NCBI GenBank assembly: GCA_013813125.1
Contig: JACCSH010000268.1
Span: forward strand, 1 to 12,962
Direction of reading: 5' to 3'
Source of the DNA: Nocardioidaceae bacterium
Lineage (GTDB): Bacteria; Actinomycetota; Actinomycetes; Propionibacteriales; Nocardioidaceae
Length of the DNA: 12,962 nucleotides
Shown: in pieces, positions 316-12,363 of the stretch
Numbering within the stretch: position 1 is the first letter of the stretch
Layout of the letters: each line of letters opens with the position of its first letter
Made by a program: the position numbers and the translations under genes
The notes under the pieces: model-generated
What the model was told of the DNA's origin: nothing
Seen by the model: only the letters and a program-made list of their open reading frames with translations
The model's database searches: none

Positions 316-1318
316 CTATGACGACTTCCAGCGGCAGCTTCGGGGAATCGCCACCGACGCCGCCAGCCAGGCCCGACTGCAGCCAGCCGCTGACATCCGC
401 CGCCGAGCGGCCCGACGCCGAGGTCTTCAGGTGACGGGCAGTGCGCTGGCGACTGCTGGCTTGGTAGTCGGAATCTGGGCGGTGGCGGCCCCCGGCACTG
501 ACAACGACGGCATCCTTCCCGCCGGTCCTCCGACGAGTACGACGTCAGGCCCCGCGCCAACCGAGTCCGGGGCGCCGACACGACCCACAGAGCCCGCCTC
601 GACCACCGAGGTCCCCCCTGACGACGGGCCGCCCAAAGACACGGCAGAGCCGCAACCGCCCCCGCCAGGGGGGTGGGTGACCACGCTTCCCGACCCGGTC
701 ACCCTCGTGCTTGTCCATGACGGGCAGAAGGCAGGCCACTCGGAGGAGTCGGACTGGAAGCCGGTCGAAGGGACGGACACCTGGTTGTTGGTGCCCTGCG
801 ACGGTTTTGAAGACGCCGGCTATCCGTCGGACAAGCTGCGCACGGAGCACCGGGCGATCGCGCAGAGCGGGATCGAGCGCGTCGTCGCGGAGCAGGTCGC
901 GGTCTATCCCAGCGATGTCGAGGCGATCCAGGCAATGCAGGAGATGCGGCAAGCGCTGATCGACTGCTCAGACGAACGCACGAGGCACCCGGCCGACGGC
1001 ACGTACACGGACTCCTTCTGGGACTTCGCCGATTCGGTCGCCAAGACCTCCGTCGGCAACCTGGAGCCGGACGAGTCGTTCCAGGCCTGGAACTGGAACC
1101 GCACGTACAACGAGGAAGGCCAACCCACCTATGGGCTGGGCGGTGGTTTCTTCACGGTCACCCGGGTCGGGAACGCGGTCCTACTCACCGTGTCCGACGG
1201 GGAGACCGACTGGGGCCGGCCGGGGGCGCCCGCGGAGGTCGCCGTGGAGCTGGCCAAGACAACGCGTGCCGTGCTCATCAACCTGTGCGAATGGTATTCG
1301 GCAGCCGACGGCTGCTGA
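308..1318 (+). CDS. Membrane-anchored protein with extracytoplasmic Cys-containing domain, putative sigma regulator
   Basis: 336 residues. I chose the ATG at 308 because GGGAAG (295-300) lies 7 bp upstream; an in-frame ATG at 284 would add eight residues but has no such site. Residues 1-40 are a short, basic cytoplasmic segment (DIRRRAARRR at 29-38). Residues about 41-62 form one hydrophobic helix (GSALATAGLVVGIWAVAA). Residues about 65-125 are a Pro/Thr/Ser/Glu-rich linker. The rest is an extracytoplasmic domain with four cysteines (LVPCDG, LIDCSD, NLCEWY, DGC at the end), which could form two disulfides. The layout resembles actinobacterial sensor domains of the PknH-C or lipoprotein type, but I do not recognise a named family. 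The 8-bp overlap with the sigma gene suggests an anti-sigma or sensor role. No zinc anti-sigma HxxxCxxC motif is present, so a classical ZAS anti-sigma is not supported. Confidence 0.85.
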   Translation: MSDYDDFQRQLRGIATDAASQARLQPAADIRRRAARRRGLQVTGSALATAGLVVGIWAVAAPGTDNDGILPAGPPTSTTSGPAPTESGAPTRPTEPASTTEVPPDDGPPKDTAEPQPPPPGGWVTTLPDPVTLVLVHDGQKAGHSEESDWKPVEGTDTWLLVPCDGFEDAGYPSDKLRTEHRAIAQSGIERVVAEQVAVYPSDVEAIQAMQEMRQALIDCSDERTRHPADGTYTDSFWDFADSVAKTSVGNLEPDESFQAWNWNRTYNEEGQPTYGLGGGFFTVTRVGNAVLLTVSDGETDWGRPGAPAEVAVELAKTTRAVLINLCEWYSAADGC

Positions 1319-1441
1319 CGTTCCTGCCAAAACACCTCCTCGACTAGCAACGCAACGAATGCGCTCGCCGGACGGCTATGCGGCTGAGGGTTGCAAACGA
1401 GCGCGTGAAGGCAGGCTGGTCGCCACGAACAGGAGACGTCG

Positions 1442-1528
1442 GCTTATGCCGGTGATCGCCGGATCTACACGGCGAAGGGCGGAGCGCTCTGCAACACCCC
1501 GTTTACTCTCACCTTCTCGTTCTCCTAA
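1442..1528 (+). pseudogene. Possible remnant of a secreted serine-protease-like gene
   Basis: One frame reads AGDRRIYTAKGGALCNTPFT followed by LTFSFS and a stop, with no start codon and an upstream stop near 1406. The 'GDRxIYT..GG.LC..(G/P)FTLTF' pattern loosely resembles the beginning of the mature part of streptogrisin-like S1 proteases (GGD..Y....GRCS.GF.V). The catalytic His region that should follow is not readable. This is a weak resemblance from memory, and the stretch may be chance. The surrounding 1319-1633 holds nothing else I can support. Confidence 0.18.
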
Positions 1529-1633
1529 CGGGTCGGACAGGCGGGTTACGGCCTCGACACCGTTGCCAGCTAGCGCAACAACTGGCTCAGTCCAGGTAGT
1601 CGCGCACTAAGGACGCTTCAGCGCTGTGCGACT

Positions 1634-1667
1634 AAGCGTTGTAAACGTGCAGGTCACAAGCGTTGTG
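1634..1667. promoter_or_regulatory. Operator-like site: repeated AAGCGTTGT with a 13-bp palindrome
   Basis: AAGCGTTGT occurs at 1634-1642 and again at 1658-1666, a 24-bp period. The second copy sits inside a perfect palindrome CACAA-GCG-TTGTG (1655-1667). An AT-richer stretch GAAATATCTT follows, then GAGAGG (1688-1693), then an ATG at 1701. The position is right for a repressor site over a promoter serving the short open frame at 1701. The regulator and the -10/-35 hexamers are not established. Confidence 0.3.
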
Positions 1668-1700
1668 CGGTGAAATATCTTCGACTGAGAGGCGACACCA

Positions 1701-1814
1701 ATGTCGACCACCACCGCAGATGAGCTCCCGCGTTCAGCACCGCCCCACGTTTCCACCGGGGTCCCGTCCCCCGGATACGGACACAAGCTGGGGTCGGGAG
1801 ACAAACGAGCTTGA
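1701..1814 (+). pseudogene. 37-codon fragment resembling the N-terminus of an amino-acid permease
   Basis: The open frame starts at an ATG 7 bp after GAGAGG and reads MSTTTADELPRSAPPHVSTG, then VPSPGYGHKLGSGDKRA and a stop. The ending 'GY.HKLGS' is where cytoplasmic N-termini of APC-family amino-acid permeases usually run into their first membrane helix ('GY.K.L..RQ..MIAIGG'). Here no membrane helix follows. It is 37 bp upstream of the insertion-sequence end at 1852, so the element or a linked deletion may have removed the rest. The family assignment is from memory of N-terminal style only. A genuine small peptide cannot be excluded. Confidence 0.3.
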
Positions 1815-1851
1815 GCCCGGCCCGAGGGCACATGGGGTAAACCGGGTGGCG

Positions 1852-2388
1852 TGACCCCTTGAGATTGGTTTACTCGTGATGAGACTCGATGGCCCACCAT
1901 GGTGGGTGAAGAAGGATCGTCATGACGACTCGTCGACGACATATACGGAGCAGGTTGTCCGCAAGCTGCGGAGAGGCCGACCGAGTACTGAACGACGGCG
2001 GCGGCGTCCTGGACAAGATCGCCGCCGACCGCGGCCGCCACCCGAGTTTCATCCGCAGCGACAACGGCCCCGAACTGACCGCTCACGCCCGCAAAGACTG
2101 GTGCCGGTTCAACTCCGCCGGCACCGCCTACATCGACCCCGGCGCACCCTGGCAGAACCCCTGGGTCGAGTCCTACGGCTCCCGGATGCGCGACGAACTA
2201 CTAGCCCTCGAAGTCTTCGACACACTGCTCCAGGCGCAAGTGCTTGTCTGCGACTGGCGAGACGAGTACAACCAATACCGACCCCACTCCGCCCTCGGCA
2301 TGCTCACCCCGCATCAGCACCACGACCGGTGGCAGACCAACCAACCCCAACTCTCATAACGGATGGACCACTCAACGGGGTCCGGTCA
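1852..2388 (+). mobile_element. Internally deleted IS3-family insertion sequence
   Basis: The left end reads TGACCCCTTGAG (1852-1863). The right end read inward on the minus strand from 2388 is TGACCGGACCCCGTTGAG, so both ends carry TGACC and a shared (G)ACCCC.TTGAG core in inverted orientation. The right boundary is either 2383 or 2388. No target duplication is obvious: the flanks are GGTGGCG and CGGGCG. Between the ends lies only about 0.54 kb, against 1.2-1.4 kb for an intact IS3 element. The start of OrfA is joined to the C-terminal half of OrfB. The element cannot transpose by itself, but its ends might still be mobilised by a full copy elsewhere. Confidence 0.75.
1922..2359 (+). pseudogene. 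IS3-family transposase remnant, OrfA start fused to OrfB integrase core
   Basis: The ATG at 1922 follows GAAGGA (1911-1916). The first codons, MTTRRR, belong to OrfA. The OrfA-like sequence TYTEQVVRKLR is in the neighbouring frame, and EADRVLNDGGGV is back in the first frame. This shows a one-base loss near 1938-1941 compensated by a one-base gain near 1970-1973. From about LDKIAADRGRHPSFIRSDNG the sequence is OrfB: the second catalytic Asp lies in RSDNGPEL, and the catalytic Glu probably in NPWVESYGSRMRDELL, followed by the usual C-terminal YNQYRPHSALG. The OrfA zinc/HTH end, the frameshift window and the first catalytic Asp are missing, so the DDE triad is incomplete. The family assignment is secure; activity is excluded. 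Confidence 0.82.
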
Positions 2389-2511
2389 CGGGCGTTAGGG
2401 AGCGTGTCCCCAGTCCGGAAGCATGCCCGCGAACAGCGTGTTGACCGTTCCGCCAGAAGCTCTATTCCAGTCAGTAACTCTGTGCCTTCGGCCGCAGGGT
2501 CGGCGACCGCG
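2389..2511. other. Short non-coding gap between IS remnant and ribokinase end
   Basis: This 123-bp stretch has no convincing gene and no clear terminator hairpin for the minus-strand operon. On the minus strand one frame reads NTLFAGMLPDWGHAP and a stop (ending near 2396), which could be the tail of a lost downstream gene, but I do not recognise it. A near-perfect 14-bp palindrome, CCTTCGGCCGCAGG, is present around 2484-2497. Confidence 0.4.
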
Positions 2512-3447
2512 TCACGGATGGCTGCGTCCATGGGGGTCTTGCGAACTCATTCGCAGCTGGACCTCCTCGGCCGTAGGGAAAGAGGCCTGGGTGCCAGGCC
2601 GTTGGGTGCTCAAGGAACCGCAGACCGTGGCCATCTTGACTGCTTGTTCCACTTCTTCCCCGGCCCCGATCGCATAGGAGAAGCCGCCCAAGAAGGCGTC
2701 CCCTGCGCCAGTCGTGTCAACGGCTTTGACCGCGACAGCGGGGACATGGCGAACGGCTTCCTTACTGGGGAAAGCGGCTCCCAATTCCCCTAAAGTCACG
2801 AGGAGACGGCCTTGCAGCCCGGAGTCTGCCCGCAGGATCTCGGCGTTCTCAGGTGGGGCCCCGAACAGCAGCTCGAACTCGTTCTCGTTCGGAACCAGCC
2901 AGTCCGCAAGCTCCAGCACGTCGGCTCGAAGAGCAGCGGCAGGGGCTGGGTTGAGGATATTGACAGCGCCCCAGCGCCGGCCGAGTTTGAAGGCCTCTGC
3001 GACCGCGTCTTGGGGAATCTCGAGTTGGCACACCACGCAGTCCGCACCGTCGATGTCGGCCAACTCAGAGCGCACCACATCTGGAGTAACAGCCTCGTTT
3101 GCGCCGGGGATGATGATGATGCGATTCGTCCCGGACGGTTCGACCCAGATCGGCGCGACCCCAGTTGAAATGGTGGGAATGGGGTCTCCCAACCGGAGCG
3201 ATACTCCTTGCTCCGCTAAGTGCTTTCGGGTCAACTCACCGAAGAAGTCGTCACCAACGCGATTGACGAAGACAACCTCTGCTCCTAAGCCGGCAGCCAT
3301 GACGGCCTGGTTGGCCCCCTTGCCACCAAAGCCCAGTTGAAACTCTGTCCCTCTCAGAGTCTGCCCTGGACCGGGTAGTACAGGCGCGTATGCGACGAGG
3401 TCCATCATTGTCGAACCGACGACAACGATCCGCGGAGTCCTGTTCAC
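2512..3447 (-). CDS. rbsK: Ribokinase, PfkB family carbohydrate kinase
   Basis: 311 residues, the usual ribokinase length. The frame stays open for 79 codons upstream. The GTG at 3447 is preferred because GGAGA (3455-3459) is 7 bp upstream and homology begins at once with RIVVVGSTMMDLV. Asp16 lies at the sugar-binding position. GFGGKGANQA (39-48) is PfkB signature 1, and DTTGAGDAFLGG (244-255) is signature 2 with the catalytic base Asp250. The enzyme would phosphorylate ribose or a related furanose at O5 with ATP in the cytoplasm. It is the last gene of the operon, 55 bp after the GATase-like gene, the widest gap in the unit. The product is clearly in the ribokinase branch, but deoxyribokinase or another furanose kinase is possible. 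Confidence 0.93.
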   Translation of the reverse strand: MNRTPRIVVVGSTMMDLVAYAPVLPGPGQTLRGTEFQLGFGGKGANQAVMAAGLGAEVVFVNRVGDDFFGELTRKHLAEQGVSLRLGDPIPTISTGVAPIWVEPSGTNRIIIIPGANEAVTPDVVRSELADIDGADCVVCQLEIPQDAVAEAFKLGRRWGAVNILNPAPAAALRADVLELADWLVPNENEFELLFGAPPENAEILRADSGLQGRLLVTLGELGAAFPSKEAVRHVPAVAVKAVDTTGAGDAFLGGFSYAIGAGEEVEQAVKMATVCGSLSTQRPGTQASFPTAEEVQLRMSSQDPHGRSHP

Positions 3448-3454
3448 GAAGAAG

Positions 3455-3459
3455 TCTCC
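3455..3459 (-). promoter_or_regulatory. Ribosome binding site deciding the ribokinase start
   Basis: GGAGA on the minus strand, 7 bp before the GTG at 3447. Upstream in-frame codons lie within the 3' end of the preceding gene and match no ribokinase sequence. Confidence 0.7.
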
Positions 3460-3502
3460 GGTGGCATCGTCTGGACCTGACAACGCAGCGATTGAGGGCC
3501 CA

Positions 3503-4267
3503 TCAGCTGTCCCGTCCGGAAAGCCATTCCAGTAGCTGACTCCAGAAAGAGCCGTACCCCTCCCACGCCATGAACTCTGGACTACCCCAGTGAGGGGAGC
3601 AGTCTGACGCGAAGGCCGCTGATCTGCCTTGCCCTCGCTCCCCGACGATGAGGAAAGGGTCTTGTTCGACAGCCAGCAAGACATCGCCTGTTGGCTTTGC
3701 CGTCAGCCGGTTGTAGCCAAGGAAGTACGGCCATGGCCGCGGCAAACCGCGCAGAATGGGATGTCCGCTGAGCTGGACCTCAGGGTGGACTCCCTCCGGC
3801 CGTTCGGCGCGGTCGTCGTAGCCTTTGATTCCAACAGGAAGACATTCCTCCACGGGTGTGGCGTGATAACGGCCCTTACCCTCAAATCCTGCGAAGGACA
3901 TGTAACCGCCGACCATGAGAAAGCCGCCTCCTGAGTTGACCCACTCGTCGATCACGGAGAGTCGGTTAGGTGTCCGCTCACCGCGTACGAAAGTGTCCGG
4001 GTGCAGGAGAAGCGTGTCAGCACCAATATCGCTGAGGATCACGACGTCATAGTCGTTGAGTGCTTCGACGCTAGCAGGAAAGGCCTCAGTGGCCGCGTGG
4101 TTCGCGATGTGGTCTACGTCCCAATCGTGTGCGGACAGCGCAGCGACGAACTCGGCGCTGCCGACCGCATACTCGCCAGTCGTGTAGGCGGAGAACCCCT
4201 TCTGATGGATCCCGTATGTAAGCCACGTTTCTCCGGCGAGCAGAACACGGCGGCGACTGTCGTTCAT
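3503..4267 (-). CDS. Glutamine-amidotransferase-fold protein (GATase1-like), function unknown
   Basis: 254 residues, cytoplasmic, with no signal or membrane segment. It resembles the uncharacterised GATase1-like family often labelled 'putative glutamine amidotransferase' (Pfam GATase1_like, distantly ThuA-like). Visible marks are GETWLTYGIHQKGFSAYTTG (12-31), DVVILSDIGADTLLLHP (74-90), GGGFLMVGGYMSFAGFEGKG (113-132) and SAAFASDCSPHWG (216-228). The expected nucleophile-elbow region reads GGYMSF with no cysteine; the cysteines are Cys142 and Cys223. A glutaminase reaction is therefore not supported, and another hydrolase, isomerase or binding role is possible. The start ATG follows GGAG that directly overlaps the preceding gene's TAG stop (TAGGAG), 8 bp after the permease. 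Co-transcription with transporter and ribokinase suggests a sugar or nucleoside-like substrate. Confidence 0.85.
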   Translation of the reverse strand: MNDSRRRVLLAGETWLTYGIHQKGFSAYTTGEYAVGSAEFVAALSAHDWDVDHIANHAATEAFPASVEALNDYDVVILSDIGADTLLLHPDTFVRGERTPNRLSVIDEWVNSGGGFLMVGGYMSFAGFEGKGRYHATPVEECLPVGIKGYDDRAERPEGVHPEVQLSGHPILRGLPRPWPYFLGYNRLTAKPTGDVLLAVEQDPFLIVGERGQGRSAAFASDCSPHWGSPEFMAWEGYGSFWSQLLEWLSGRDS

Positions 4268-4275
4268 GGCAACTC

Positions 4276-5271
4276 CTAGAGTCGAATGCGAGGATCGGCC
4301 GCGGCTTGCGCCAGGTCGACGAGGGTGTTCACGATGACGTACCCAGCACCCACGACAAGCGTCACCCCGGCAATAGCGCGCAGATCACTGAACGCGATGG
4401 ACTGGTTCAGGTAGAGACCGATGCCTGGCCACGCGAAGATGGCTTCCACTATCACGACTCCACCGAGCAACAATCCAAGCTGGAGCCCCGCCATGGTCAG
4501 CGGCGCCGACAAGGCGTTGCGCAACGCATGCCTGAACAGCACCGACCGTGGGGGCAGTCCTTTAGCGTGAAGCGTGCGAATGTAGTCGGACCGGTAGACC
4601 TCGATGAGCGACGATCGCAGCACTCGGCCGATCGCCACCGCCGGGACAAGCGCAAGCGCCAGCCCTGGAAGGATGAGGTGACGTAATGCATCCAAAAACA
4701 CATCAGGGCGTGCGTGCAGAAGCGAGTCGAGTAGCAGCAGACCAGTGGGGGCCTCTGGTGCGTCAGCCACGCTGGTGCGACCTGACAGCGGAAGCCACGA
4801 CAGCTTGAAGTAGAAGATGTAGATGAAGATCAGCGCCAGCAGGAAGGACGGAACCGAGGCACCACCGACAAACAGCAAGCGGGCGGGTGTTGCGAAGCGC
4901 GAGGACACGACGGCCAGGACGCCGATTAGTAGTCCGCCGACGACAGCCAGGAGCATGCTGAAGCCAGCGAGTTCCAGGGTCGCCGGCAAGAAGGCTCCAA
5001 TGTCGTCGCGGACGTCCCTCCCAGTGCGCAGCGACTCACCGAACCCACCTCGTACGACCTGGCCGAGATAGGTCGCGTACTGGACCGGGAGCGGCTCGTC
5101 GAGACCGAGTCGTTCCCGTTCGGCTTCTACGACCTCGTCCGACGCGTTCACGCCGACACTGGCCCGCACCGGGTCGCCGGGCACAGCGGTCTGCAGGAGG
5201 AACACCACGGTGACCAGCGCAAGGAGCACTCCCACTGCCCCGAACGCCCGCACCAGCAGGAACCGAGCCAT
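4276..5271 (-). CDS. Oligopeptide-type ABC transporter permease, DppB-like
   Basis: 331 residues, typical for DppB/OppB. There is a membrane helix at about 5-27 and then an extracytoplasmic segment beginning VPGDPVRASVG, as in this family. Further helices lie at about 95-122, 130-152, 195-220, 253-275 and 297-320. The EAA loop that docks on the ATPase reads RHALRNALSAPLTMAG, and the C-terminus ADPRIRL is the family's usual ending. The start ATG has AGGAGG 4 bp upstream, immediately after the TAG stop of the binding-protein gene. It pairs with the DppC-type permease at 6850-7704 to form the membrane channel. The substrate cannot be told from the permease. Confidence 0.93.
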   Translation of the reverse strand: MARFLLVRAFGAVGVLLALVTVVFLLQTAVPGDPVRASVGVNASDEVVEAERERLGLDEPLPVQYATYLGQVVRGGFGESLRTGRDVRDDIGAFLPATLELAGFSMLLAVVGGLLIGVLAVVSSRFATPARLLFVGGASVPSFLLALIFIYIFYFKLSWLPLSGRTSVADAPEAPTGLLLLDSLLHARPDVFLDALRHLILPGLALALVPAVAIGRVLRSSLIEVYRSDYIRTLHAKGLPPRSVLFRHALRNALSAPLTMAGLQLGLLLGGVVIVEAIFAWPGIGLYLNQSIAFSDLRAIAGVTLVVGAGYVIVNTLVDLAQAAADPRIRL

Positions 5272-5279
5272 CCGACCTC

Positions 5280-6827
5280 CTAGCGGCTGAGGGCGGCCAG
5301 ATCAACCGTCCAGGGGTAGGCCGGAACGTGCTCCACCCCGTTCAGGTCGGCTTGGGCGACGACGACGTCACTGACGTACGCGATCGGCACCACGGACCAG
5401 TCCGCAGTGGCCAGCTCACCCGCCTCGGCGTAGTCCTCGGCGGCAGCCTCAGGGTCGACTTCAACCAGTCCACGATCGAGTGCCGCATCGACCTCTGGGT
5501 TCGAGTAGTTGAAGAAGTTGAGCGGCCCCACGGTGTACCAGACGATTCGTCCCCAGGTGTCGGGATGCGCTCCGTCCGGAGCGGGGGTTGAGACGTAGAT
5601 GTCGGCGGCGTTCGCCACGTCGTCGCGGTAGCCGAAGACCTCAGCGAGCTGCGCTTGGCGCGGCGTTGCATCCACGCCGACAGCCGCCAGACGTTGGCGC
5701 ATGAGGTCGGCGAGACGGCGCTGGACTCCGCTCGAGTCGGGGGTATAGACGATGTCCAGAGTGATGCCTTGACCCGACAAGTCCGATGAGTCGCCTGGTG
5801 CGTAGTCAACAGGTGCAAGTGACGGGTCGAGCAGTCCGGCAGGATATGCATTGCTGGGGACCTCGGCCGTTTCCCCGTAGACCTCTTCCACCAAGCTGGT
5901 TATGTCCAGGGCGCGTATGAGAGCCTCCCGCGTGCCTGCGTCGGCCAGTGACTCCTTGTTGTGATTGAGGTACAGGGAGGTCGTCCCGAGAGACGGAAAC
6001 TGCTCGAGGGCGAGGTCGTCGTTGCTTTCAACATTCGGGAGGTTGGCCAAGGGAAAGCCATGTGGAATCAGTTCCAGGTCACCGCGCTCCAACGCCAAGA
6101 TTTGGCTGGAGACGTCGGGTGTGATGGCGACTTCCACGGTTGAGAAGTGCGGCTCCTCGCCCCAGTAGTTGTCGTTGCGCGTCAAGGTGTAACCGGTTCC
6201 GCGGGTAAATTCGTCGATTACGTAGGGTCCGCTACCCGCTGATTGGGTGTCCAGGTACTTCTGAGCCAGATCCGCTGAGTTCTCCTCGAGCACGGTCGGA
6301 TTGATCGCCTTGGGGCTCCAGGCCGACGCGAGATAATGCAGGAACGCGACGTCTGGGTCCTTGAGGTTGACGACGAAAGTCTGCGGGTCAGGCGTCTCGT
6401 AACTGTCTACGCCCGCGAGCATGTATGACGGGCCCTGCTCAACCGCGGTCCGGCGCTCGAAGCTCGCTTGGATGGCCTCGCTGTCGAGTGGCGTCCCGTC
6501 GGCGTAAGTCAGGTCGTCTTTCAGGGTGAATGTGAAAGTAAGCCCGTCTTCGGATACTTCCCACGACTCCGCCAGCTCCCCCTCGATCTCTGTTCCACCG
6601 GGGGCGTATCGCAGGAGGCCTTCGTAAACCGACTGCATCACTGCGAGTCCCTCGATGTCGTAGAAGATGTCAGGATCCGCGGTGGCCATGTCTGCGAAGA
6701 ACGCGATGTTGAGCGTGTCATCGCTTTCAACTGACTGGTTCTCTTGTTCCTCGCCGCCGCTGCACGCCGTAGCGAGAAGCGCAGCCGTGAGGGAGAGGGC
6801 GACGTATGTTCGTATTTTGTTGGGCAC
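5280..6827 (-). CDS. Extracellular solute-binding lipoprotein, family 5 (SBP_bac_5)
   Basis: 515 residues. The GTG at 6827 is chosen because AGGAGG ends 4 bp before it and the signal peptide begins there (VPNKIRTYVALSLTAALL). The lipobox is LATAC, with Cys22 as the lipid-modified residue; Ala rather than Leu at -3 is slightly unusual. A Ser/Glu/Asp linker follows. The mature domain shows SBP_bac_5 marks: IAFFADMATADPD, MQSVYEGLLRY, LAESWEVSEDGLTFTFTLKD, ADGTPLDSEAIQASFER and the C-terminal NYSNPEVDAALDRG. It captures substrate outside the membrane and hands it to the two permeases. The family binds peptides but also glycans, nickel and nucleoside-like antibiotics. It lies between the two permease genes, 22 bp after DppC and 8 bp before DppB. 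Confidence 0.94.
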   Translation of the reverse strand: MPNKIRTYVALSLTAALLATACSGGEEQENQSVESDDTLNIAFFADMATADPDIFYDIEGLAVMQSVYEGLLRYAPGGTEIEGELAESWEVSEDGLTFTFTLKDDLTYADGTPLDSEAIQASFERRTAVEQGPSYMLAGVDSYETPDPQTFVVNLKDPDVAFLHYLASAWSPKAINPTVLEENSADLAQKYLDTQSAGSGPYVIDEFTRGTGYTLTRNDNYWGEEPHFSTVEVAITPDVSSQILALERGDLELIPHGFPLANLPNVESNDDLALEQFPSLGTTSLYLNHNKESLADAGTREALIRALDITSLVEEVYGETAEVPSNAYPAGLLDPSLAPVDYAPGDSSDLSGQGITLDIVYTPDSSGVQRRLADLMRQRLAAVGVDATPRQAQLAEVFGYRDDVANAADIYVSTPAPDGAHPDTWGRIVWYTVGPLNFFNYSNPEVDAALDRGLVEVDPEAAAEDYAEAGELATADWSVVPIAYVSDVVVAQADLNGVEHVPAYPWTVDLAALSR

Positions 6828-6831
6828 AAGG

Positions 6832-6837
6832 CCTCCT
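6832..6837 (-). promoter_or_regulatory. Strong ribosome binding site of the binding-protein gene
   Basis: AGGAGG on the minus strand with 4 bp to the GTG at 6827. It sits inside TAGGAGG, the same string that bridges stop and start at the DppB junction, and rules out an in-frame start ten codons upstream. Confidence 0.75.
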
Positions 6838-6849
6838 AGGTGGGGAAGG

Positions 6850-7704
6850 TCAACCACGGTCGAATAGGTCCCTTATACCGTCGCCCGCAAGGTTCGCGGC
6901 AACGGCGAGGATGAACACGGCGCACCCGGGCGCCAGCGGAATCCATGGGCTAGTGAAGAGGGAGTCCGCACCTCGGGCGGCCATGGCGCCGAGCTCGGGC
7001 GAAGGTGCCGGCGCACCGAGTCCGATGAATGACAGACCGGCCAGGGTCAGCACGAGAATCTGGATGTCTAAACTGGCTGTAACGATCACCGGGGGTATGG
7101 CGCCCGGAAGCAGATGGCGGAACATCAACCGACCCCGGGACACGCCACTGAGCCGAGCCGCGTCGACATGTGGTCGAGCGGCCAGTGAGCGAATCTCCCC
7201 TCTGACGAGGCGCGCGTACCAGGGCCACCAGACCACCGCGATGCCGATCACGGTATTGCGAAGGCTCGCGCCCAATGCAGCCGCCACTGCGATGGCAAGA
7301 ACGGGACCGGGCAGGGCAAGGAACGTGTCAGTGAGGCGCATCAGGAGCGAGTCGACCCACCCGCCACGTGCGCCGGCGACCAACCCGATGAGACCACCGA
7401 CCACGATGGCCGATGCGATCACTGCTACTGCGCTGAGCCAACTAGTGCGCATGCCGTACATCACCCGCGCAAAGATGTCCTGGCCAACGTCGTCAGTGCC
7501 GAGCAGGTGTTGGAGCGACGGAGGTTGAAAAGCCGGTCCTACCGAGATCACGGGGTCAGTGACGAAGAGTGGAGCTGCCAAAGAGATCGCCAAGAGCAGG
7601 AGGAGTACGACGATGCCGACGCGCTCGAGTACTCCTACTCCGCGCATTCGGGCTCCATATCGTTGTGTCGCGTTCATCGAGGCGCCGGCTGAACCCGGGC
7701 TCAC
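6850..7704 (-). CDS. Oligopeptide-type ABC transporter permease, DppC-like
   Basis: 284 residues from the GTG at 7704. The first helix is IVVLLLLLAISLAAPLFV. The DppC mark HLLGTDDVGQDIFARVMYG comes next, then four more helices (SAVAVIASAIVVGGLIGLVAG; LPGPVLAIAVAAALGA; IGIAVVWWPWYARLV; PWIPLAPGCAVFILAVAANL). The EAA loop is RHLLPGAIPPVIV, the ending GDGIRDLFDRG. Starts at 7722 (ATG, overlapping the ATPase gene by 10 bp) and 7677 (ATG) are also possible. I prefer 7704 because GAGAGG overlaps the ATPase stop with 4 bp to the GTG, the same geometry as at DppB. It forms the channel with DppB; both dock on the fused ATPase just upstream. Confidence 0.92.
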   Translation of the reverse strand: MSPGSAGASMNATQRYGARMRGVGVLERVGIVVLLLLLAISLAAPLFVTDPVISVGPAFQPPSLQHLLGTDDVGQDIFARVMYGMRTSWLSAVAVIASAIVVGGLIGLVAGARGGWVDSLLMRLTDTFLALPGPVLAIAVAAALGASLRNTVIGIAVVWWPWYARLVRGEIRSLAARPHVDAARLSGVSRGRLMFRHLLPGAIPPVIVTASLDIQILVLTLAGLSFIGLGAPAPSPELGAMAARGADSLFTSPWIPLAPGCAVFILAVAANLAGDGIRDLFDRG

Positions 7705-7708
7705 GACA

Positions 7709-7714
7709 CCTCTC
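7709..7714 (-). promoter_or_regulatory. Ribosome binding site overlapping the ATPase stop codon
   Basis: GAGAGG on the minus strand begins within the TGA (7713-7715) of the ATPase gene and ends 4 bp before the GTG at 7704. A ribosome finishing the ATPase would be placed to reinitiate. Confidence 0.6.
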
Positions 7715-9527
7715 ACCGGCATGTGGACACCTGCGGTACAGAGGCCAGCAGTGCCTGCGTGTACGGGTTCGACGGGTGATCTACGACGTTGTCCGGCGGT
7801 CCCTCTTCGACGATACGGCCGCCCGTCATCACGATGATTCGGTCGGCGACCAGCCTGGCAGCCGCGAGGTCGTGGCTCACGAAGATCATGCCGAAGCCCA
7901 GCTCCCTGCGCAGGCGTCCGAGCAGGTTCAAGACGGTGGCGGCCAGCGAGGCGTCCAGGGCGGAGATTGGTTCGTCGCAAAGCAACAGGTCGGGTGGCTC
8001 GATGACCGCCCGGGCAAGGGCCGCCCGTTGACGCTGCCCACCGGATAGCTGCTGGACACGTGCGCGGGCCACCTCGGCCGGCAGACCGAGGCGGTTGAGC
8101 ACCTCTGAAACCCGCTCGCCTTGTGTCGCCATCGGCAGGTGAGCGACCCGCTCGTATAGATGTTGGCCAACGGTGAGCCAGGGAGTGAAGGAGGATCCAG
8201 CATCTTGAAACACCATCTGGGGCATGCGTCCGGCTCCGCCCAGCACGACGCTGCCTGATGTCGGCGCCTGCAGGCCGGCTATGACACGCAGCAGCGTTGT
8301 CTTCCCGCTCCCGCTTTCGCCCACCACGGCAATCGACTCACCACGGTTTACGTCCAGGTCTACTTCGCGCAGAGCATCGAAGGGCTCGCTGCGGCGCAAT
8401 CCACGCCGACCTGGGAATCGAACACTGAGCCGGCGCACCGTCACACCTCCGTCGCCGGCTGTGGGCACACTAGGACCCCATAGACCGGCAACACGTGACA
8501 ACCCGCGGGCTACGTCCTCACCGGCGTGATAATGGCACGCGGCCAACCCGCCCTGGGCTGGTACCACGGTGAGCAACGGCCGCTTCTCGACGCACAATGG
8601 CGTGGCGGCTGGGCACCTAGGCGCGAAATTGCAGCCGGCGGGATCTGTGGAAGGCTGCACAGGTTCGCCGGCGATGACCGGCAGCTGATGGCGGCGATCG
8701 GCCTGTAGGCGAATTCGCGAGGTCATCAGAGCAGCGGTGTATGGGTGCCCCGGGTGATCAAGAACGGGGCGCACCTGTCCGACTTCCGCTACCAGCCCGC
8801 CGTACAGGACGCAGATTCGGTCCGCAACGGTCGAAGCCACCGCAAGATCATGGGTGACCAAGAGGATCGCGCACCCGTGTTCGTCCCGCATCCGCCGAAA
8901 CAGCGTCAGGACCTGTGCCTGCACCGTCACGTCGAGAGCTGTGGTGGGCTCATCCGCGATCACCAGCTTCGGCTTCCCAGCGAGCGCGATTGCGAGCATC
9001 ACCCGTTGCCGCAGCCCACCCGACAACTCGTGCGGGAAGTCACGCAAACGCCGTTGTCCGCCCGGAATGCCCACGGCCGCTAACAACCGGAGCACTTCCG
9101 CGGTGCTGCCGGCCACCTCATGGACCTGGCGACCGATTCGCATAGTCGGATCGAGCGAGGTCATCGGGTCCTGAAACACGGCACCCAGGGCACTTCGACG
9201 GAGCTTGCGGCGCATCGGTTCGCTGGCTCGCGTAATGTCGACGCCATCGACGGTCACGACGCCTTCGACCCGCGCAGACTTGGGCAGCAGCCCCAGCATC
9301 GACAGACCCAAGACAGTCTTGCCCGATCCCGACTCCCCGACCAACCCTACGATCTCCCCGGCGGCTATCCGCAGATCCACTCCCCGCAGCGCGTGCAGGT
9401 CGCGACCGTCGCGGCTGAACGTCACGGCTAGTCCTTCGACATCCGCCACCGCCGATGACGGTGCGGAACTCACTGACGAGGCAGTGACGGAGGGTTGCTC
9501 CGCTGCGGGGCGCTGGATCTTGACCAC
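7713..9527 (-). CDS. Fused two-domain oligopeptide-type ABC ATPase (DppD-DppF fusion)
   Basis: 604 residues containing two complete nucleotide-binding domains. Domain 1 has Walker A GESGSGKT (64-71), Q-loop FQDPMTSLDP (118-127), signature LSGGLRQ (168-174), Walker B LVIADEP (188-194) and H-loop THD. After it comes the oligopeptide HPY segment with the Cys pattern GCNFAPRCPAATPLC...CHYH (299-334). Domain 2 has Walker A GESGSGKT (403-410), Q441, signature LSGGQRQ (494-500), Walker B LLLCDEP (514-520) and SHD (551-553); it ends HPSNPYTQALLASVP without an HPY tail. Peptide importers usually make these as two proteins. Both sites look catalytically complete. The start is a GTG 6 bp after the hydrolase stop with no strong Shine-Dalgarno, so it probably depends on coupling. 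A start further in (near SVSSAPSS) cannot be excluded. Confidence 0.94.
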   Translation of the reverse strand: MVKIQRPAAEQPSVTASSVSSAPSSAVADVEGLAVTFSRDGRDLHALRGVDLRIAAGEIVGLVGESGSGKTVLGLSMLGLLPKSARVEGVVTVDGVDITRASEPMRRKLRRSALGAVFQDPMTSLDPTMRIGRQVHEVAGSTAEVLRLLAAVGIPGGQRRLRDFPHELSGGLRQRVMLAIALAGKPKLVIADEPTTALDVTVQAQVLTLFRRMRDEHGCAILLVTHDLAVASTVADRICVLYGGLVAEVGQVRPVLDHPGHPYTAALMTSRIRLQADRRHQLPVIAGEPVQPSTDPAGCNFAPRCPAATPLCVEKRPLLTVVPAQGGLAACHYHAGEDVARGLSRVAGLWGPSVPTAGDGGVTVRRLSVRFPGRRGLRRSEPFDALREVDLDVNRGESIAVVGESGSGKTTLLRVIAGLQAPTSGSVVLGGAGRMPQMVFQDAGSSFTPWLTVGQHLYERVAHLPMATQGERVSEVLNRLGLPAEVARARVQQLSGGQRQRAALARAVIEPPDLLLCDEPISALDASLAATVLNLLGRLRRELGFGMIFVSHDLAAARLVADRIIVMTGGRIVEEGPPDNVVDHPSNPYTQALLASVPQVSTCR

Positions 9528-9533
9528 GGAAGC

Positions 9534-10172
9534 TCAGACCATGACCGACTGGACCGGCCCGCCCACCGGAGGACGGCGAGGACCCCGAAACTCGCGGAAC
9601 GCGGCGACAATCTCGTCGGTCTGGCGCAACGCCCCAGTTTGCAGATACTCCATCGCGTTGAGCGACGCGGTATGAGCCGCTTGCGACGAGCCCCCGACCG
9701 CGTCAGCGGCGACGCGCACATGGTAGTCGTGCTGGTGGGCATCGACGAAGGTGTAGTGGACACACACGTCGGTCAACGCGCCACACAAAACAAGGGTCTG
9801 CGCCTTGAGGCCCTTCAAGAGGATCTCCAGGTCAGTGCCGAAGAATGCTGAGTACCGCCGCTTGATCACGTGATACTCATCAGGGAGCGGTGACAGTGCC
9901 GGTACGAGGCTGGTGTCCGAGTCGTCTTCGACGCAGTGCACATCCTCTTGGCCATCGAGTTCGCGACCAAAGTCAGCCAGCGTCCGGCTGTGCCTTTCCT
10001 GGAGGAAGATCACCGGGATGCCGGCCTCGCGGGCGGCGGTCAACATGGCAACGCACTTGTCCACTCGGACCGCGAACCCGCCCATCTGCGGGACTGCATA
10101 GTTTTCGTTGTAACCAGCGAGCTGGTTGTCGATGGAGATGAAGACCGGCTGGCCGATGATCAGGTCGCTCAT
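9534..10172 (-). CDS. Isochorismatase-family cysteine hydrolase
   Basis: 212 residues. The ATG at 10172 overlaps the stop of the LacI gene as ATGA, so translation is coupled; an open frame continues 30 codons upstream but lies within that gene. The family's triad is complete: Asp15 (ISIDNQLAGYN), Lys104 (HVIKRRYSAFFGT) and Cys137 (LCGALTDVCVHYTF), with the GxxTxxC loop and DAHQHDYHVRVAADAVGG after it. Members hydrolyse C-N bonds by a thioester mechanism (nicotinamidase, N-carbamoylsarcosine amidase, ureidoacrylate amidohydrolase, biuret hydrolase) or isochorismate's vinyl ether. The metal-binding His pair of nicotinamidases is not evident, so nicotinamidase itself is not favoured. It is the first enzyme of the operon, next to the regulator, and presumably acts on the imported substrate in the cytoplasm. 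Confidence 0.93.
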   Translation of the reverse strand: MSDLIIGQPVFISIDNQLAGYNENYAVPQMGGFAVRVDKCVAMLTAAREAGIPVIFLQERHSRTLADFGRELDGQEDVHCVEDDSDTSLVPALSPLPDEYHVIKRRYSAFFGTDLEILLKGLKAQTLVLCGALTDVCVHYTFVDAHQHDYHVRVAADAVGGSSQAAHTASLNAMEYLQTGALRQTDEIVAAFREFRGPRRPPVGGPVQSVMV

Positions 10173-11239
10173 TCGTTGCTGTCCGTTCTCGGTGGGGAGG
10201 CTTCGGCGAAGCCCTTGTCCTTCTTGCGGTGTAGCCGGCGCGGGTGCTCGAGGTTGGCACAAGAGCCGCGGGCGGTTATGAAGGTGTCGAGGACGATGTG
10301 CTGCGCCTGGTCCGGGCCTTCGTCCTCCATGCGGTTGCGTAACAGCCGCATCGCCAAGACGCCCTGCTCAACCGCGGGACGCGAGATGACAGACAATGGG
10401 GGGCTGAGCAACTCAGCCAACTCCAGGTCGTCGAACCCGACCACCGACACTTCGTCAGGGACACGTACCGCCATGTGGCGCAGTGCTCTGAGGACGCCGA
10501 TTGTCATCAGGTTGTTGGCCGAGAAGATGGCGGTCACTGCCGTCGGCAACCCCAAGAGTCGAAGAGTTGCCTGATAACCGCTCTTTAATCGGAAGTCGCC
10601 TATCTGAACCAGAGCAGGTTCCAAGTCGACGCCGGCTGACTGCATCGCCTCCACGAAGCCGTCGTGACGCTCACGACCAGGAGTCGTGTCGAGAGGGCCA
10701 CTGATCAGCCCAATCCGCTCGTGTCCGAAGCTCATGAGGTGCTTCGCAGCCTGTTCCGCCCCGCCGCGAGAGTCGACAAGCACAGAGTCCAGGTCGTCTG
10801 CGCCGGTGAGAATGCGGTCGAGCAGCACGATGGGTACTCCGGCTCGCCGCAGCTCTCCAGTGTTGTTGGACCCCTCCCGCGCAGGCACCAAGATGACACC
10901 GTCGACGCGACCAATCAGCCCCTCCAGGACGTTTCGCTCCCGCTCGACGTTCTCGTCGGTATTGCTGAGGAAGACGTTCAACTCGAGCTGACGGGAGACG
11001 GATTCGACCCCCTTGGCGACGGTTGCGAAGAACGGGTTGGAGACGTCAGGGACCACTAGGCCAATCGTCCGGGTTACTCCGGACTTGAGGCTGCGTGCCG
11101 TGTGACTGGCCCGGAAGTCGAGTGCCTCGATCGACGCCTGTACGGCTGCCGCGCTGCGGATCTTCTGGCCGGCAAGATGACGCGACACCGTAGTCGTCGA
11201 GACTCCCGCGTGTTTGGCCACGTCACCGATAGTGCCCAC
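10169..11239 (-). CDS. LacI-family transcriptional regulator
   Basis: 356 residues from the GTG at 11239. The helix-turn-helix starts immediately (TIGDVAKHAGVSTTTVSRHL, residues 3-22), and the hinge helix HTARSLKSG (46-54) follows. The periplasmic-binding-like sensor domain begins RTIGLVVPDVSNPFFATV (57-74) and includes DGVILVPA, GAEQAAKHLMSFGHERIGLI and VPDEVSVVGFDD. A basic 30-residue tail after RGSCANLEH is longer than usual. The start codon has no clear Shine-Dalgarno; the open frame runs 98 codons further upstream, without LacI-like sequence. It heads the minus-strand operon and overlaps the hydrolase gene by 4 bp. By family rule it represses until a small ligand, often a sugar, binds. 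An imperfect palindrome 12-35 bp upstream suggests autoregulation. Confidence 0.93.
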   Translation of the reverse strand: MGTIGDVAKHAGVSTTTVSRHLAGQKIRSAAAVQASIEALDFRASHTARSLKSGVTRTIGLVVPDVSNPFFATVAKGVESVSRQLELNVFLSNTDENVERERNVLEGLIGRVDGVILVPAREGSNNTGELRRAGVPIVLLDRILTGADDLDSVLVDSRGGAEQAAKHLMSFGHERIGLISGPLDTTPGRERHDGFVEAMQSAGVDLEPALVQIGDFRLKSGYQATLRLLGLPTAVTAIFSANNLMTIGVLRALRHMAVRVPDEVSVVGFDDLELAELLSPPLSVISRPAVEQGVLAMRLLRNRMEDEGPDQAQHIVLDTFITARGSCANLEHPRRLHRKKDKGFAEASPPRTDSNE

Positions 11240-11250
11240 GAAAGGGAACT

Positions 11251-11274
11251 GTAGACGATAACTGAAATCGTTAC
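11251..11274. promoter_or_regulatory. Candidate LacI-family operator at the head of the operon
   Basis: On the plus strand GTAGACGAT (11251-11259) and ATCGTTAC (11267-11274) are inverted, with a perfect core ACGAT/ATCGT separated by 7 bp and outer GTA/TAC matching. It lies 12-35 bp before the LacI gene's start. A TATCGT (-10-like, TAnnnT) overlaps it on the minus strand, so a bound repressor would block RNA polymerase. The spacing is looser than the compact palindromes most LacI proteins use, so this is a moderate call. Confidence 0.42.
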
Positions 11275-11391
11275 CACCCCATGTGCCGCGACCTTCTGCC
11301 CTTGGCGCGGATGATTCCGGGCCCCCAATCGGTGAGCCCGTTGAGTTTTTGCTTCCGAGCGCCCCGAGGCTGGGTAACGTCTTTCGCCTAG

Positions 11392-11845: not shown

Positions 11846-12363
11846 CTATCCCGTGGTCGTCGGACGTCGTTTGCGCTCGATTCGTAGTGCCAAATCTGCT
11901 CGCGCGATGAGATTCTCAAGTGAGTCGTGTGCTTCAAGGGCGGCTATTCCAACGGTCACTGAAGCGTTCGCGGCTGCCAGATCAGCATTGATCTCGAAAA
12001 AGCGCCGCGCGGCCTGGTCCGCATTGAGGTTTTGGGCACACAGGAACTCATCGCCTCCAAACCGAACGATGAGGTCGTAATCGCGGAAATGTGCCCGCAT
12101 GGTGTCGACGACCCTGCGCAGTAATCGGTCGCCGGCTCCACCTCGCCGGCCTCGTTTGGCTCCGTAACGGTCCGACACTGCCCCCAGGTCGACCGTTGCA
12201 GCTTCCTGTTCACGAATTTCGGCTCTCCGGTCACGTTCCTCCGACCTCTCGTCTCGGCTCTCCGATGGCCGGTCGTGAAGCTCCGATATTGCGTCACGGG
12301 CCTCGGCTGTTCGATCCCTGTCATCGGCGCCTTGATTCCGTCGGGTCCTGGAAAGGCACTCAT
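11846..12363 (-). pseudogene. Diguanylate cyclase (GGDEF) gene with frameshift and internal deletion
   Basis: The C-terminal part is clear GGDEF: AGDRLLRRVVDTMRAHFRDY, IVRFGGDEFLCA (active site about 12048-12075), SVTVGIAALE and ENLIARADLAL. Upstream in the same frame lies the charged actinobacterial N-terminus: RRNQGADDRDRTAEARD, SESRDERSEERDRRAEIREQ and EAATVDLGAVSDRYGAKRGR. The first half of the GGDEF domain (D.D.LK..ND..GH) that should stand between RRGG and AGDRLL is missing, roughly 80-90 residues. The likely start is an ATG at 12363 (MSAFPGP), which is in another frame and joins by a frameshift near 12340. The Mg/GTP-binding half is lost, so c-di-GMP synthesis is excluded. A GTG at 12178 could give a 110-residue product, but it would be only a partial domain. 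Confidence 0.75.

What the first reader, a model, noticed from the sequence alone, without database searches (positions are those of the whole stretch)
2512..11239. Eight-gene catabolic operon of unknown substrate: LacI, cysteine hydrolase, ABC importer, GATase-like, ribokinase
All eight genes are intact, on one strand, with gaps of 55 bp or less and two overlapping or reinitiating junctions. The set combines a peptide-type importer with a C-N hydrolase and a ribokinase, which does not match a textbook pathway. One inferred use is uptake of a ribosylated amide or nucleoside-like compound, with amide cleavage and ribose phosphorylation. No nucleosidase or phosphorylase is present in the window, so either the GATase-like protein does this step, the gene lies elsewhere, or the hypothesis is wrong.
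Basis: partly seen in the sequence, partly recalled or inferred. Interest (0 to 1): 0.72.

Follow-up and report, generated by a model that had tools for sequence, protein, structure and literature searches.

The report
Operon scavenging ribose from unknown compound
Eight bacterial genes form one regulated unit that probably imports a ribose-bearing nitrogen compound, cuts off its nitrogen-rich part and feeds the ribose into metabolism; relatives show that its least understood protein recurs in many ribose-related gene clusters, but the compound itself is still unknown.

Summary
In detail: eight intact minus-strand genes (lacI, isochorismatase-family hydrolase, fused Opp/Dpp-type ATPase, two permeases, family-5 lipoprotein SBP, GATase1_like PF07090, ribokinase), gaps -4 to 55 bp. 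All eight occur together in four genomes (window MAG, two named Nocardioidaceae MAGs, one Gaiella MAG) and six of them in a Chloroflexi MAG, with a LacI-type operator/promoter block kept upstream of lacI. Neighbours of PF07090 elsewhere include ribokinases, M20/carbamoylase amidases, PnrA-type nucleoside importers with a RihB-like nucleosidase, RbsD and phosphotriesterases. The importer plus hydrolase also occur without PF07090/ribokinase, beside allantoinase, urease or ureohydrolase genes; in one contig the gene order matches up to a swapped tail. Best reading: import of a ribosylated ureide/amide, amide or N-carbamoyl cleavage by the isochorismatase homologue, release of ribose with help from PF07090 (no canonical glutamine-amidotransferase cysteine), and phosphorylation. 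Substrate and PF07090 chemistry are unproven. A 2026 paper found ribokinase activity in Salmonella STM3547, beside a PF07090 gene, and left that pathway open.

The parts
11248..11277 (-). conserved operator/promoter block GTGGTAACGATTTCAGTTATCGTCTACAGT just upstream of lacI; the TGGTAACGATNNCAG core resembles a LacI-family operator (resemblance recalled), TACAGT a possible -10
   Evidence: Aligned in the window, L014/G001, L012 and, diverged, L016; one perfect core match in each of G000, G001, G002, 0 for the reversed control pattern, the G002 one on a short contig whose next genes are lacI and the hydrolase; 1 match in the window at up to 2 mismatches, 0.14 expected
10169..11239 (-). LacI-family regulator; nearest models RbsR, CcpA, PurR, CytR, all below cut-off
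9534..10172 (-). isochorismatase-family cysteine hydrolase with Asp, Lys, Cys triad positions (ISIDN, VIKRRY, TDVCVH)
7713..9527 (-). fused two-domain Opp/Dpp-type ABC ATPase
6850..7677 (-). ABC permease, NikC/DppC type
5280..6827 (-). family-5 extracellular solute-binding protein with a lipobox-like LATAC
4276..5271 (-). ABC permease, NikB/DppB type
3503..4267 (-). GATase1_like (PF07090) protein of unknown activity; elbow GGYMSF without Cys
2512..3447 (-). ribokinase (PfkB family) with GGKGAN, QLEIP, DTTGAGDAF

Best explanation
A LacI-autoregulated scavenging operon for a ribose-bearing ureide or amide. A family-5 lipoprotein and its Dpp/Opp-type ABC transporter bring the compound in. The isochorismatase-family enzyme hydrolyses a C-N bond of the amide/ureido part (N-carbamoyl type most likely). 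The PF07090 protein, which lacks the glutamine-amidotransferase cysteine, acts on the ribosyl side, for example freeing ribose from the ribosyl-amine or ribosyl-amide left behind. Ribokinase makes ribose 5-phosphate. Shown by computation: the operon, its conservation, the operator block, ribokinase identity by sequence, the hydrolase triad, and the recurrent partners. Inferred: autoregulation, substrate, the order of steps, and the PF07090 reaction.
For: All eight genes together in the window, G001/L014, L012 and L016; hydrolase genes of these operons plus Chloroflexi L015 form one starred clade, 100/98. Ribokinase call: 5, 55, 96. Of 99 PF07090 loci, 57 have a PfkB-type kinase hit within 8 kb, 50 an amidase-type hit (M20/M28/Zn/isochorismatase), 30 both. 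Among 48 non-redundant loci (from 86 of the 99), 20 have a kinase within 7 kb, density 6.9 per 100 kb at 0-2 kb against 1.3 at 7-10.5 kb; M20/M28/Zn amidases 12.7 against 1.8. The order nucleosidase-M20-PF07090 is in 13 of 99 loci; the one nucleosidase tested is over the ribosylpyrimidine nucleosidase cut-off. RbsD in 5 of 99 (the one tested is over cut-off). Carbamoylase-family amidase (TIGR01879, 386.7 and 373.7 bits against 204) in two PF07090 + ribokinase operons. Hydrolase + importer without PF07090/ribokinase beside allantoinase, urease or ureohydrolase. STM3547, next to a PF07090 gene, has ribokinase activity (PMC13432705: outline with abstract, and passages).
Against: No substrate evidence. 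The hydrolase is far below every characterised model that matched (biuret hydrolase 63 of 370 bits, RutB 52.4 of 378). 28 of 48 non-redundant PF07090 loci have no kinase hit within 7 kb, LacI hits show no steady fall with distance (5.8, 1.1, 4.6, 3.1 per 100 kb), and a sugar-permease family (MalF) meant as a control also fell with distance (1.6, 2.3, 0, 0.4; 8 hits in all), because such permeases also lie in PF07090 clusters; so the density test has no clean control. Some PF07090 contexts point to sugar-amino-acid conjugates: on pTiChry5 beside a hydantoinase/oxoprolinase-family pair and fructoselysine kinase, on an E. coli plasmid beside an alpha/beta hydrolase and an amino-acid permease. L015 lacks lacI and ribokinase hits. 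The importer's ATPase exceeds the nickel NikD cut-off. 6 of the 8 ureide-type sister operons are from one genus.
Confidence: 0.42

Rival explanations
1. Glycated amino acid or peptide (Amadori-type or ribosyl-amino-acid conjugate) catabolism: the importer takes up a sugar-amino-acid conjugate, the hydrolase cleaves an amide of the amino-acid part, and PF07090 with the kinase handles the sugar.
For: pTiChry5 and pTi2788: PF07090 beside hydantoinase/oxoprolinase-family genes, SIS-domain protein, fructoselysine 6-kinase and (pTiChry5) an ABC importer annotated only as such; peptidase-type partners M20, M28, alpha/beta hydrolase and amino-acid permease; peptide-type importer in the window.
Against: The kinase is a ribokinase, not FrlD-like (fructoselysine 6-kinase model 47.3 of 247 bits). 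On pTiChry5 a divergent lysR separates the PF07090 gene from the others, so it may be a separate unit. No deglycase gene in the window operon.
Confidence: 0.2
2. Ordinary nucleoside or ribose-containing compound scavenging in which a nucleosidase or phosphorylase elsewhere in the genome frees ribose, and PF07090 is accessory.
For: Two PF01048 (nucleoside phosphorylase family) matches in G000, one in G001, two in G002; 13 of 99 PF07090 loci have nucleosidase, M20 and PF07090 in line.
Against: Only a partial, below cut-off nucleoside hydrolase match in 1 of 3 genomes of the genus, inside a ThuA/nucleosidase chimeric ORF; these genomes are 76-85% complete. PF01048 members may be housekeeping enzymes. 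The importer is not of the nucleoside type.
Confidence: 0.15
3. Nickel or metal-chelate importer with unrelated passengers.
For: ATPase over the NikD cut-off (335.7 of 318.7) and SBP best model NikA (163.8 of 393); urease genes beside the related importer in L111 and L112.
Against: SBP and both permeases are below the Nik cut-offs. No nickel enzyme among the window operon genes. Six of eight sister operons have no urease hit within 7.5 kb (L110, L113, L114, L129, L130, L132). Conserved ribokinase and hydrolase are not explained.
Confidence: 0.05
4. Pure ureide (allantoin-like) nitrogen scavenging, with the ribokinase of secondary importance.
For: Sister operons carry allantoinase, ureohydrolase, urease and metallo-beta-lactamase-fold genes.
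Against: No PF07090 or ribokinase hit in those operons; SBP identity to the window is only 34-43%; the window-type hydrolases form their own clade.
Confidence: 0.1

Closest known systems
Salmonella STM3547-STM3550 locus (RikA ribokinase, PF07090, DMT transporter, phosphotriesterase), PMC13432705
   Same: PF07090 gene beside a PfkB kinase with shown ribokinase activity; substrate of the cluster unknown, according to that paper
   Different: DMT transporter and phosphotriesterase instead of a Dpp-type ABC importer and an isochorismatase-family hydrolase
Nucleosidase-M20-PF07090 clusters (L041, L052, L053 and others)
   Same: Importer, amide hydrolase, PF07090 and often (7 of 13 within 8 kb) a PfkB-type kinase in one cluster
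   Different: PnrA-type nucleoside importer, M20 deacylase and a separate nucleoside hydrolase
Dpp importer + isochorismatase + ureide enzymes (L110-L114, L129, L130, L132)
   Same: Same importer and hydrolase families; L112 has the same gene order up to the tail
   Different: Metallo-beta-lactamase-fold gene with, in some, allantoinase, urease, ureohydrolase or 2OG oxygenase in place of PF07090 + ribokinase
URC pyrimidine pathway of Lachancea kluyveri (ribosylurea intermediate), PMC7530994
   Same: Makes and breaks a ribosylated ureide (paper passages)
   Different: DUF1688 (recalled as the URC4 family) is not found in G000, G001 or G002; different enzymes
E. coli rbs ribose operon (recalled)
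   Same: LacI-family regulator and ribokinase
   Different: Different importer type; no amidase or PF07090

Membership tests
Class I glutamine amidotransferase | nucleophile Cys in the GxCxG elbow (motif recalled) | tested here: not met
   The likely elbow is GGYMSF; no Cys at positions 118-126 in any of 52 sequences. Elbow position judged from sequence; no model could be made. A Cys at 223 is in 40 of 52 only
PF07090 GATase1_like | profile match over curated cut-off | tested here: met
   307.5 bits against 27; PDB relatives 2gk3, 3soz, 3rht
Ribokinase TIGR02152 | equivalog cut-off 299.65 bits | tested here: met
   305.9 for the window; orthologues 292.1 (L117), 308.3 (L016), 296.6 (L017), so two of three just below
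Ribokinase | phosphorylates D-ribose | not testable with these tools
   no assay
Isochorismatase-like hydrolase | Pfam cut-off and Asp-Lys-Cys triad (triad recalled) | tested here: met
   146.9 bits against 27; residues read from the sequence and alignments
Biuret hydrolase / RutB / nicotinamidase equivalogs | NCBIfam equivalog cut-offs | tested here: not met
   63 of 370, 52.4 of 377.95, 30.7 of 174
Nickel importer NikABCDE | SBP over the NikA cut-off | tested here: not met
   163.8 of 393; only the ATPase passes NikD, 335.7 of 318.7
RbsR | NCBIfam equivalog cut-off | tested here: not met
   220.9 of 531
Nucleoside-scavenging operon | nucleosidase or phosphorylase in the operon | tested here: not met
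   none among the operon genes; PF01048 genes elsewhere

The most novel reading that the evidence does not exclude
The operon is a bacterial pathway for ribosylurea-like compounds (N-carbamoyl-ribosylamine or relatives from pyrimidine or purine breakdown): the isochorismatase homologue removes the carbamoyl group, PF07090 is a new ribosylamine/ribosylamide hydrolase, and ribokinase completes it. PF07090 would then be the shared ribosyl-handling enzyme of a large, so far unexplained set of clusters that includes the Salmonella STM3548 and STM1381 proteins.
Probability: 0.12. Interest if true: 0.78.

Novelty: new variant of a known kind. Interest (0 to 1): 0.5.

Why it matters
PF07090 has crystal structures but no assigned activity that I found; a 2026 paper leaves its Salmonella cluster unexplained. 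The window gives a compact version (one importer, one amidase, PF07090, one kinase), and its sister operons suggest which half goes with the ureide part and which with ribose. That makes the PF07090 reaction directly testable with few candidates.

Tried and rejected
Plain rbs operon: rejected as the sole reading, because the importer is not RbsB-type and the amidase is conserved. Canonical glutamine amidotransferase: no elbow Cys. A LacI regulon holding the missing nucleosidase: no other perfect operator match in three incomplete genomes; the loci of two one-mismatch sites (L141, L142) gave no hit to any of my query proteins and were not looked at further. URC4-type ribosylurea breakdown: DUF1688 in 0 of 3 genomes of the genus (1 of all 7 searched, G095). 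Profile search for distant solved relatives of PF07090: only 2gk3, 3soz and 3rht up to E 10. Palindrome scan upstream of lacI was noisy by itself. Literature on AapF, on orf245/orf408/STM1380/STM1382 and on combined operon terms showed no pathway; apart from PMC13432705 I saw these as listings with abstract starts only.

Limits of the survey: the 99 loci are the best 80 of 181 genome hits, 16 plasmid regions chosen by hand from 193 records, two same-genus loci and the window. One search used 86 of the 99: 12 were dropped because my extended translation hit an early stop, and the window itself was left out; the result was cut to 48 at 70% identity. Many loci end before 8 kb. Gene calls in high-GC loci are naive; tblastn hits were preferred. 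In L016 permease C, SBP and permease B align only in part in the best stretch, possibly assembly frameshifts.
Full report
What is there. The window lies on contig C83 of a 1.8 Mb MAG in 332 contigs, 76% complete. The nearest named relatives by the PF07090 protein are Nocardioidaceae MAGs. The eight reported genes are intact, co-directional and close. Purifying selection is clear for all eight against G001/L117 and L012.

Conservation. G002/L013 has them split over contigs: permease B, PF07090 and ribokinase on one, operator, lacI and hydrolase on another; the rest was not traced. The Solirubrobacter MAG L017 holds part, from the contig end on. Chloroflexi L015 has six of eight: no lacI or ribokinase hit, an EamA transporter instead. 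The window's PF07090 protein has a match in 3 of 58 genomes, its own and two others of the genus, and in none of the 55 others of the family and order, so the unit is patchy and may move between lineages. In the hydrolase tree the five PF07090-operon copies form one clade, 100/98; support for the permease (63/66) and SBP (93/94) groups is weaker.

Regulation. A block GTGGTAACGATTTCAGTTATCGTCTACAGT at 11248-11277 lies just upstream of the lacI start and is kept in L014, L012 and, in part, L016. The core occurs perfectly once in each of G000, G001 and G002, and the reversed control pattern not at all. This points to an autoregulated operon with no detected second target; these genomes are incomplete.

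Single proteins. Kinase: TIGR02152 just over cut-off, with ribokinase motifs. Hydrolase: isochorismatase family, nearest solved chain 26st, an N-carbamoylsarcosine amidohydrolase, at 66 bits; no equivalog met. Importer: family-5 type, nearest models nickel/peptide, only the ATPase over a nickel cut-off; nearest solved SBP chain AapF 7kz8, for which I found no paper. PF07090 protein: 20 invariant residues in 52 sequences, no Cys at the expected elbow in any of the 52. A polar, strongly constrained core suggests an enzyme, but not an amidotransferase.

Neighbours of PF07090. In 99 loci the hits within 8 kb were, by locus: LacI 54, M20a 38, RbsK query 35, PfkB_E 14, PfkB_P 7, nucleosidase 16, BMP 15, PTE 16, BtpA 11, AdeC 6, Isoch 6, RbsD 5, TenA 4; any PfkB-type kinase 57, any amidase-type gene 50, both 30. 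In 13 of 99 nucleosidase, M20 and PF07090 stand in line, 12 adjacent and one (L031) with a kinase between, with a kinase hit within 8 kb in 7 of these 13. After reduction to 48 loci, kinase and amidase genes are concentrated next to PF07090 (6.9 against 1.3 and 12.7 against 1.8 per 100 kb), but 28 of 48 have no kinase hit within 7 kb, LacI shows no steady trend, and the intended control (MalF-type permease) also falls with distance; the test has no clean control. Family checks on single representatives: PnrA-like Bmp, nucleosidase, M20, PTE, AdeC-like C-terminal domain; RihB-like and RbsD above cut-off. In five plasmid records of Rhizobium, Agrobacterium, Pannonibacter and Roseivivax the order is LacI, importer, PTE, PF07090, then kinase, BtpA and TenA or a Zn-dependent hydrolase; the Zn-dependent hydrolases of L002 and L099 are carbamoylase-family amidases.

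Sister operons without PF07090. The hydrolase at E up to 1e-40 is in 8 of 396 genomes of the phylum and 13 of 394 of the class, own genome counted in both; the sets overlap. All 16 other genomes were examined: 8 have the same importer beside it. These carry a metallo-beta-lactamase-fold hit (8 of 8), allantoinase hits (3 of 8: L113, L114, L132; L113 above the AllB cut-off), 2OG-oxygenase hits (5 of 8), urease (L111; L112 gamma subunit near the contig end) and an arginase-family gene (L111). Six of the 8 are from one genus; L111 and L112 are from two other families. No PF07090 or kinase hit was found within 7.5 kb in any of the 16. The other 8 have other neighbours, among them pairs of PTE-family genes in three. 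In L112 the order Isoch, ATPase, permease C, SBP, permease B is that of the window, with MBL + urease gamma in place of PF07090 + ribokinase. My reading: importer and hydrolase serve the nitrogen-rich part; PF07090 and ribokinase serve the ribose.

Literature. PMC13432705 (outline with abstract, and passages) shows ribokinase activity of STM3547 beside PF07090 STM3548 and says that no studies of the function of STM3548-3550 were found. PMC7530994 (passages) describes ribosylurea as an intermediate of yeast uracil breakdown. A search for PF07090, GATase1_like, STM1381 and STM3548 gave two papers. No paper describing this operon showed up (listings).

Verdict. A genuine, conserved catabolic operon. 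Its parts are known families; the combination and the PF07090 step are not explained. A ribosylated ureide/amide is the best guess at moderate confidence; a sugar-amino-acid conjugate is the main rival.

Noticed in passing
window 1922-2359 (+): 145-aa ORF with an rve_3 integrase-core domain, probably an IS remnant, just downstream of the operon end.
   Followed up: no
window 11846-12178 (-): Short ORF with a partial GGDEF domain, possibly a fragment of a diguanylate cyclase upstream of the operon.
   Followed up: partly
L119 (G000:C86) 617-5106: Xylose-isomerase-like protein, FGGY kinase, then a 186-aa ORF that reads as a ThuA N-terminus running into a nucleoside-hydrolase C-terminus, then a second ribokinase; ThuA is, as recalled, of the same fold group as PF07090. 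Deletion or assembly artefact not decided.
   Followed up: partly
L112 (G246:C91) 696-7662: Operon collinear with the window operon, with a metallo-beta-lactamase-fold gene and urease gamma subunit in place of PF07090 and ribokinase.
   Followed up: partly
L133, L135, L136: Related isochorismatase-family genes next to two phosphotriesterase-family genes, without a PF07090 hit.
   Followed up: no
L093, L094 (Ti plasmids): PF07090 gene between trbI and a divergent lysR followed by hydantoinase/oxoprolinase-family genes (nearest models caprolactamase, below cut-off), SIS protein and fructoselysine 6-kinase.
   Followed up: partly
L004, L098 (Rhodococcus plasmids): PF07090-LacI-PfkB trio beside transketolase, F420-dependent G6PDH and pgi in one, and PRPP synthetase and nicotinate phosphoribosyltransferase in the other.
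   Followed up: no
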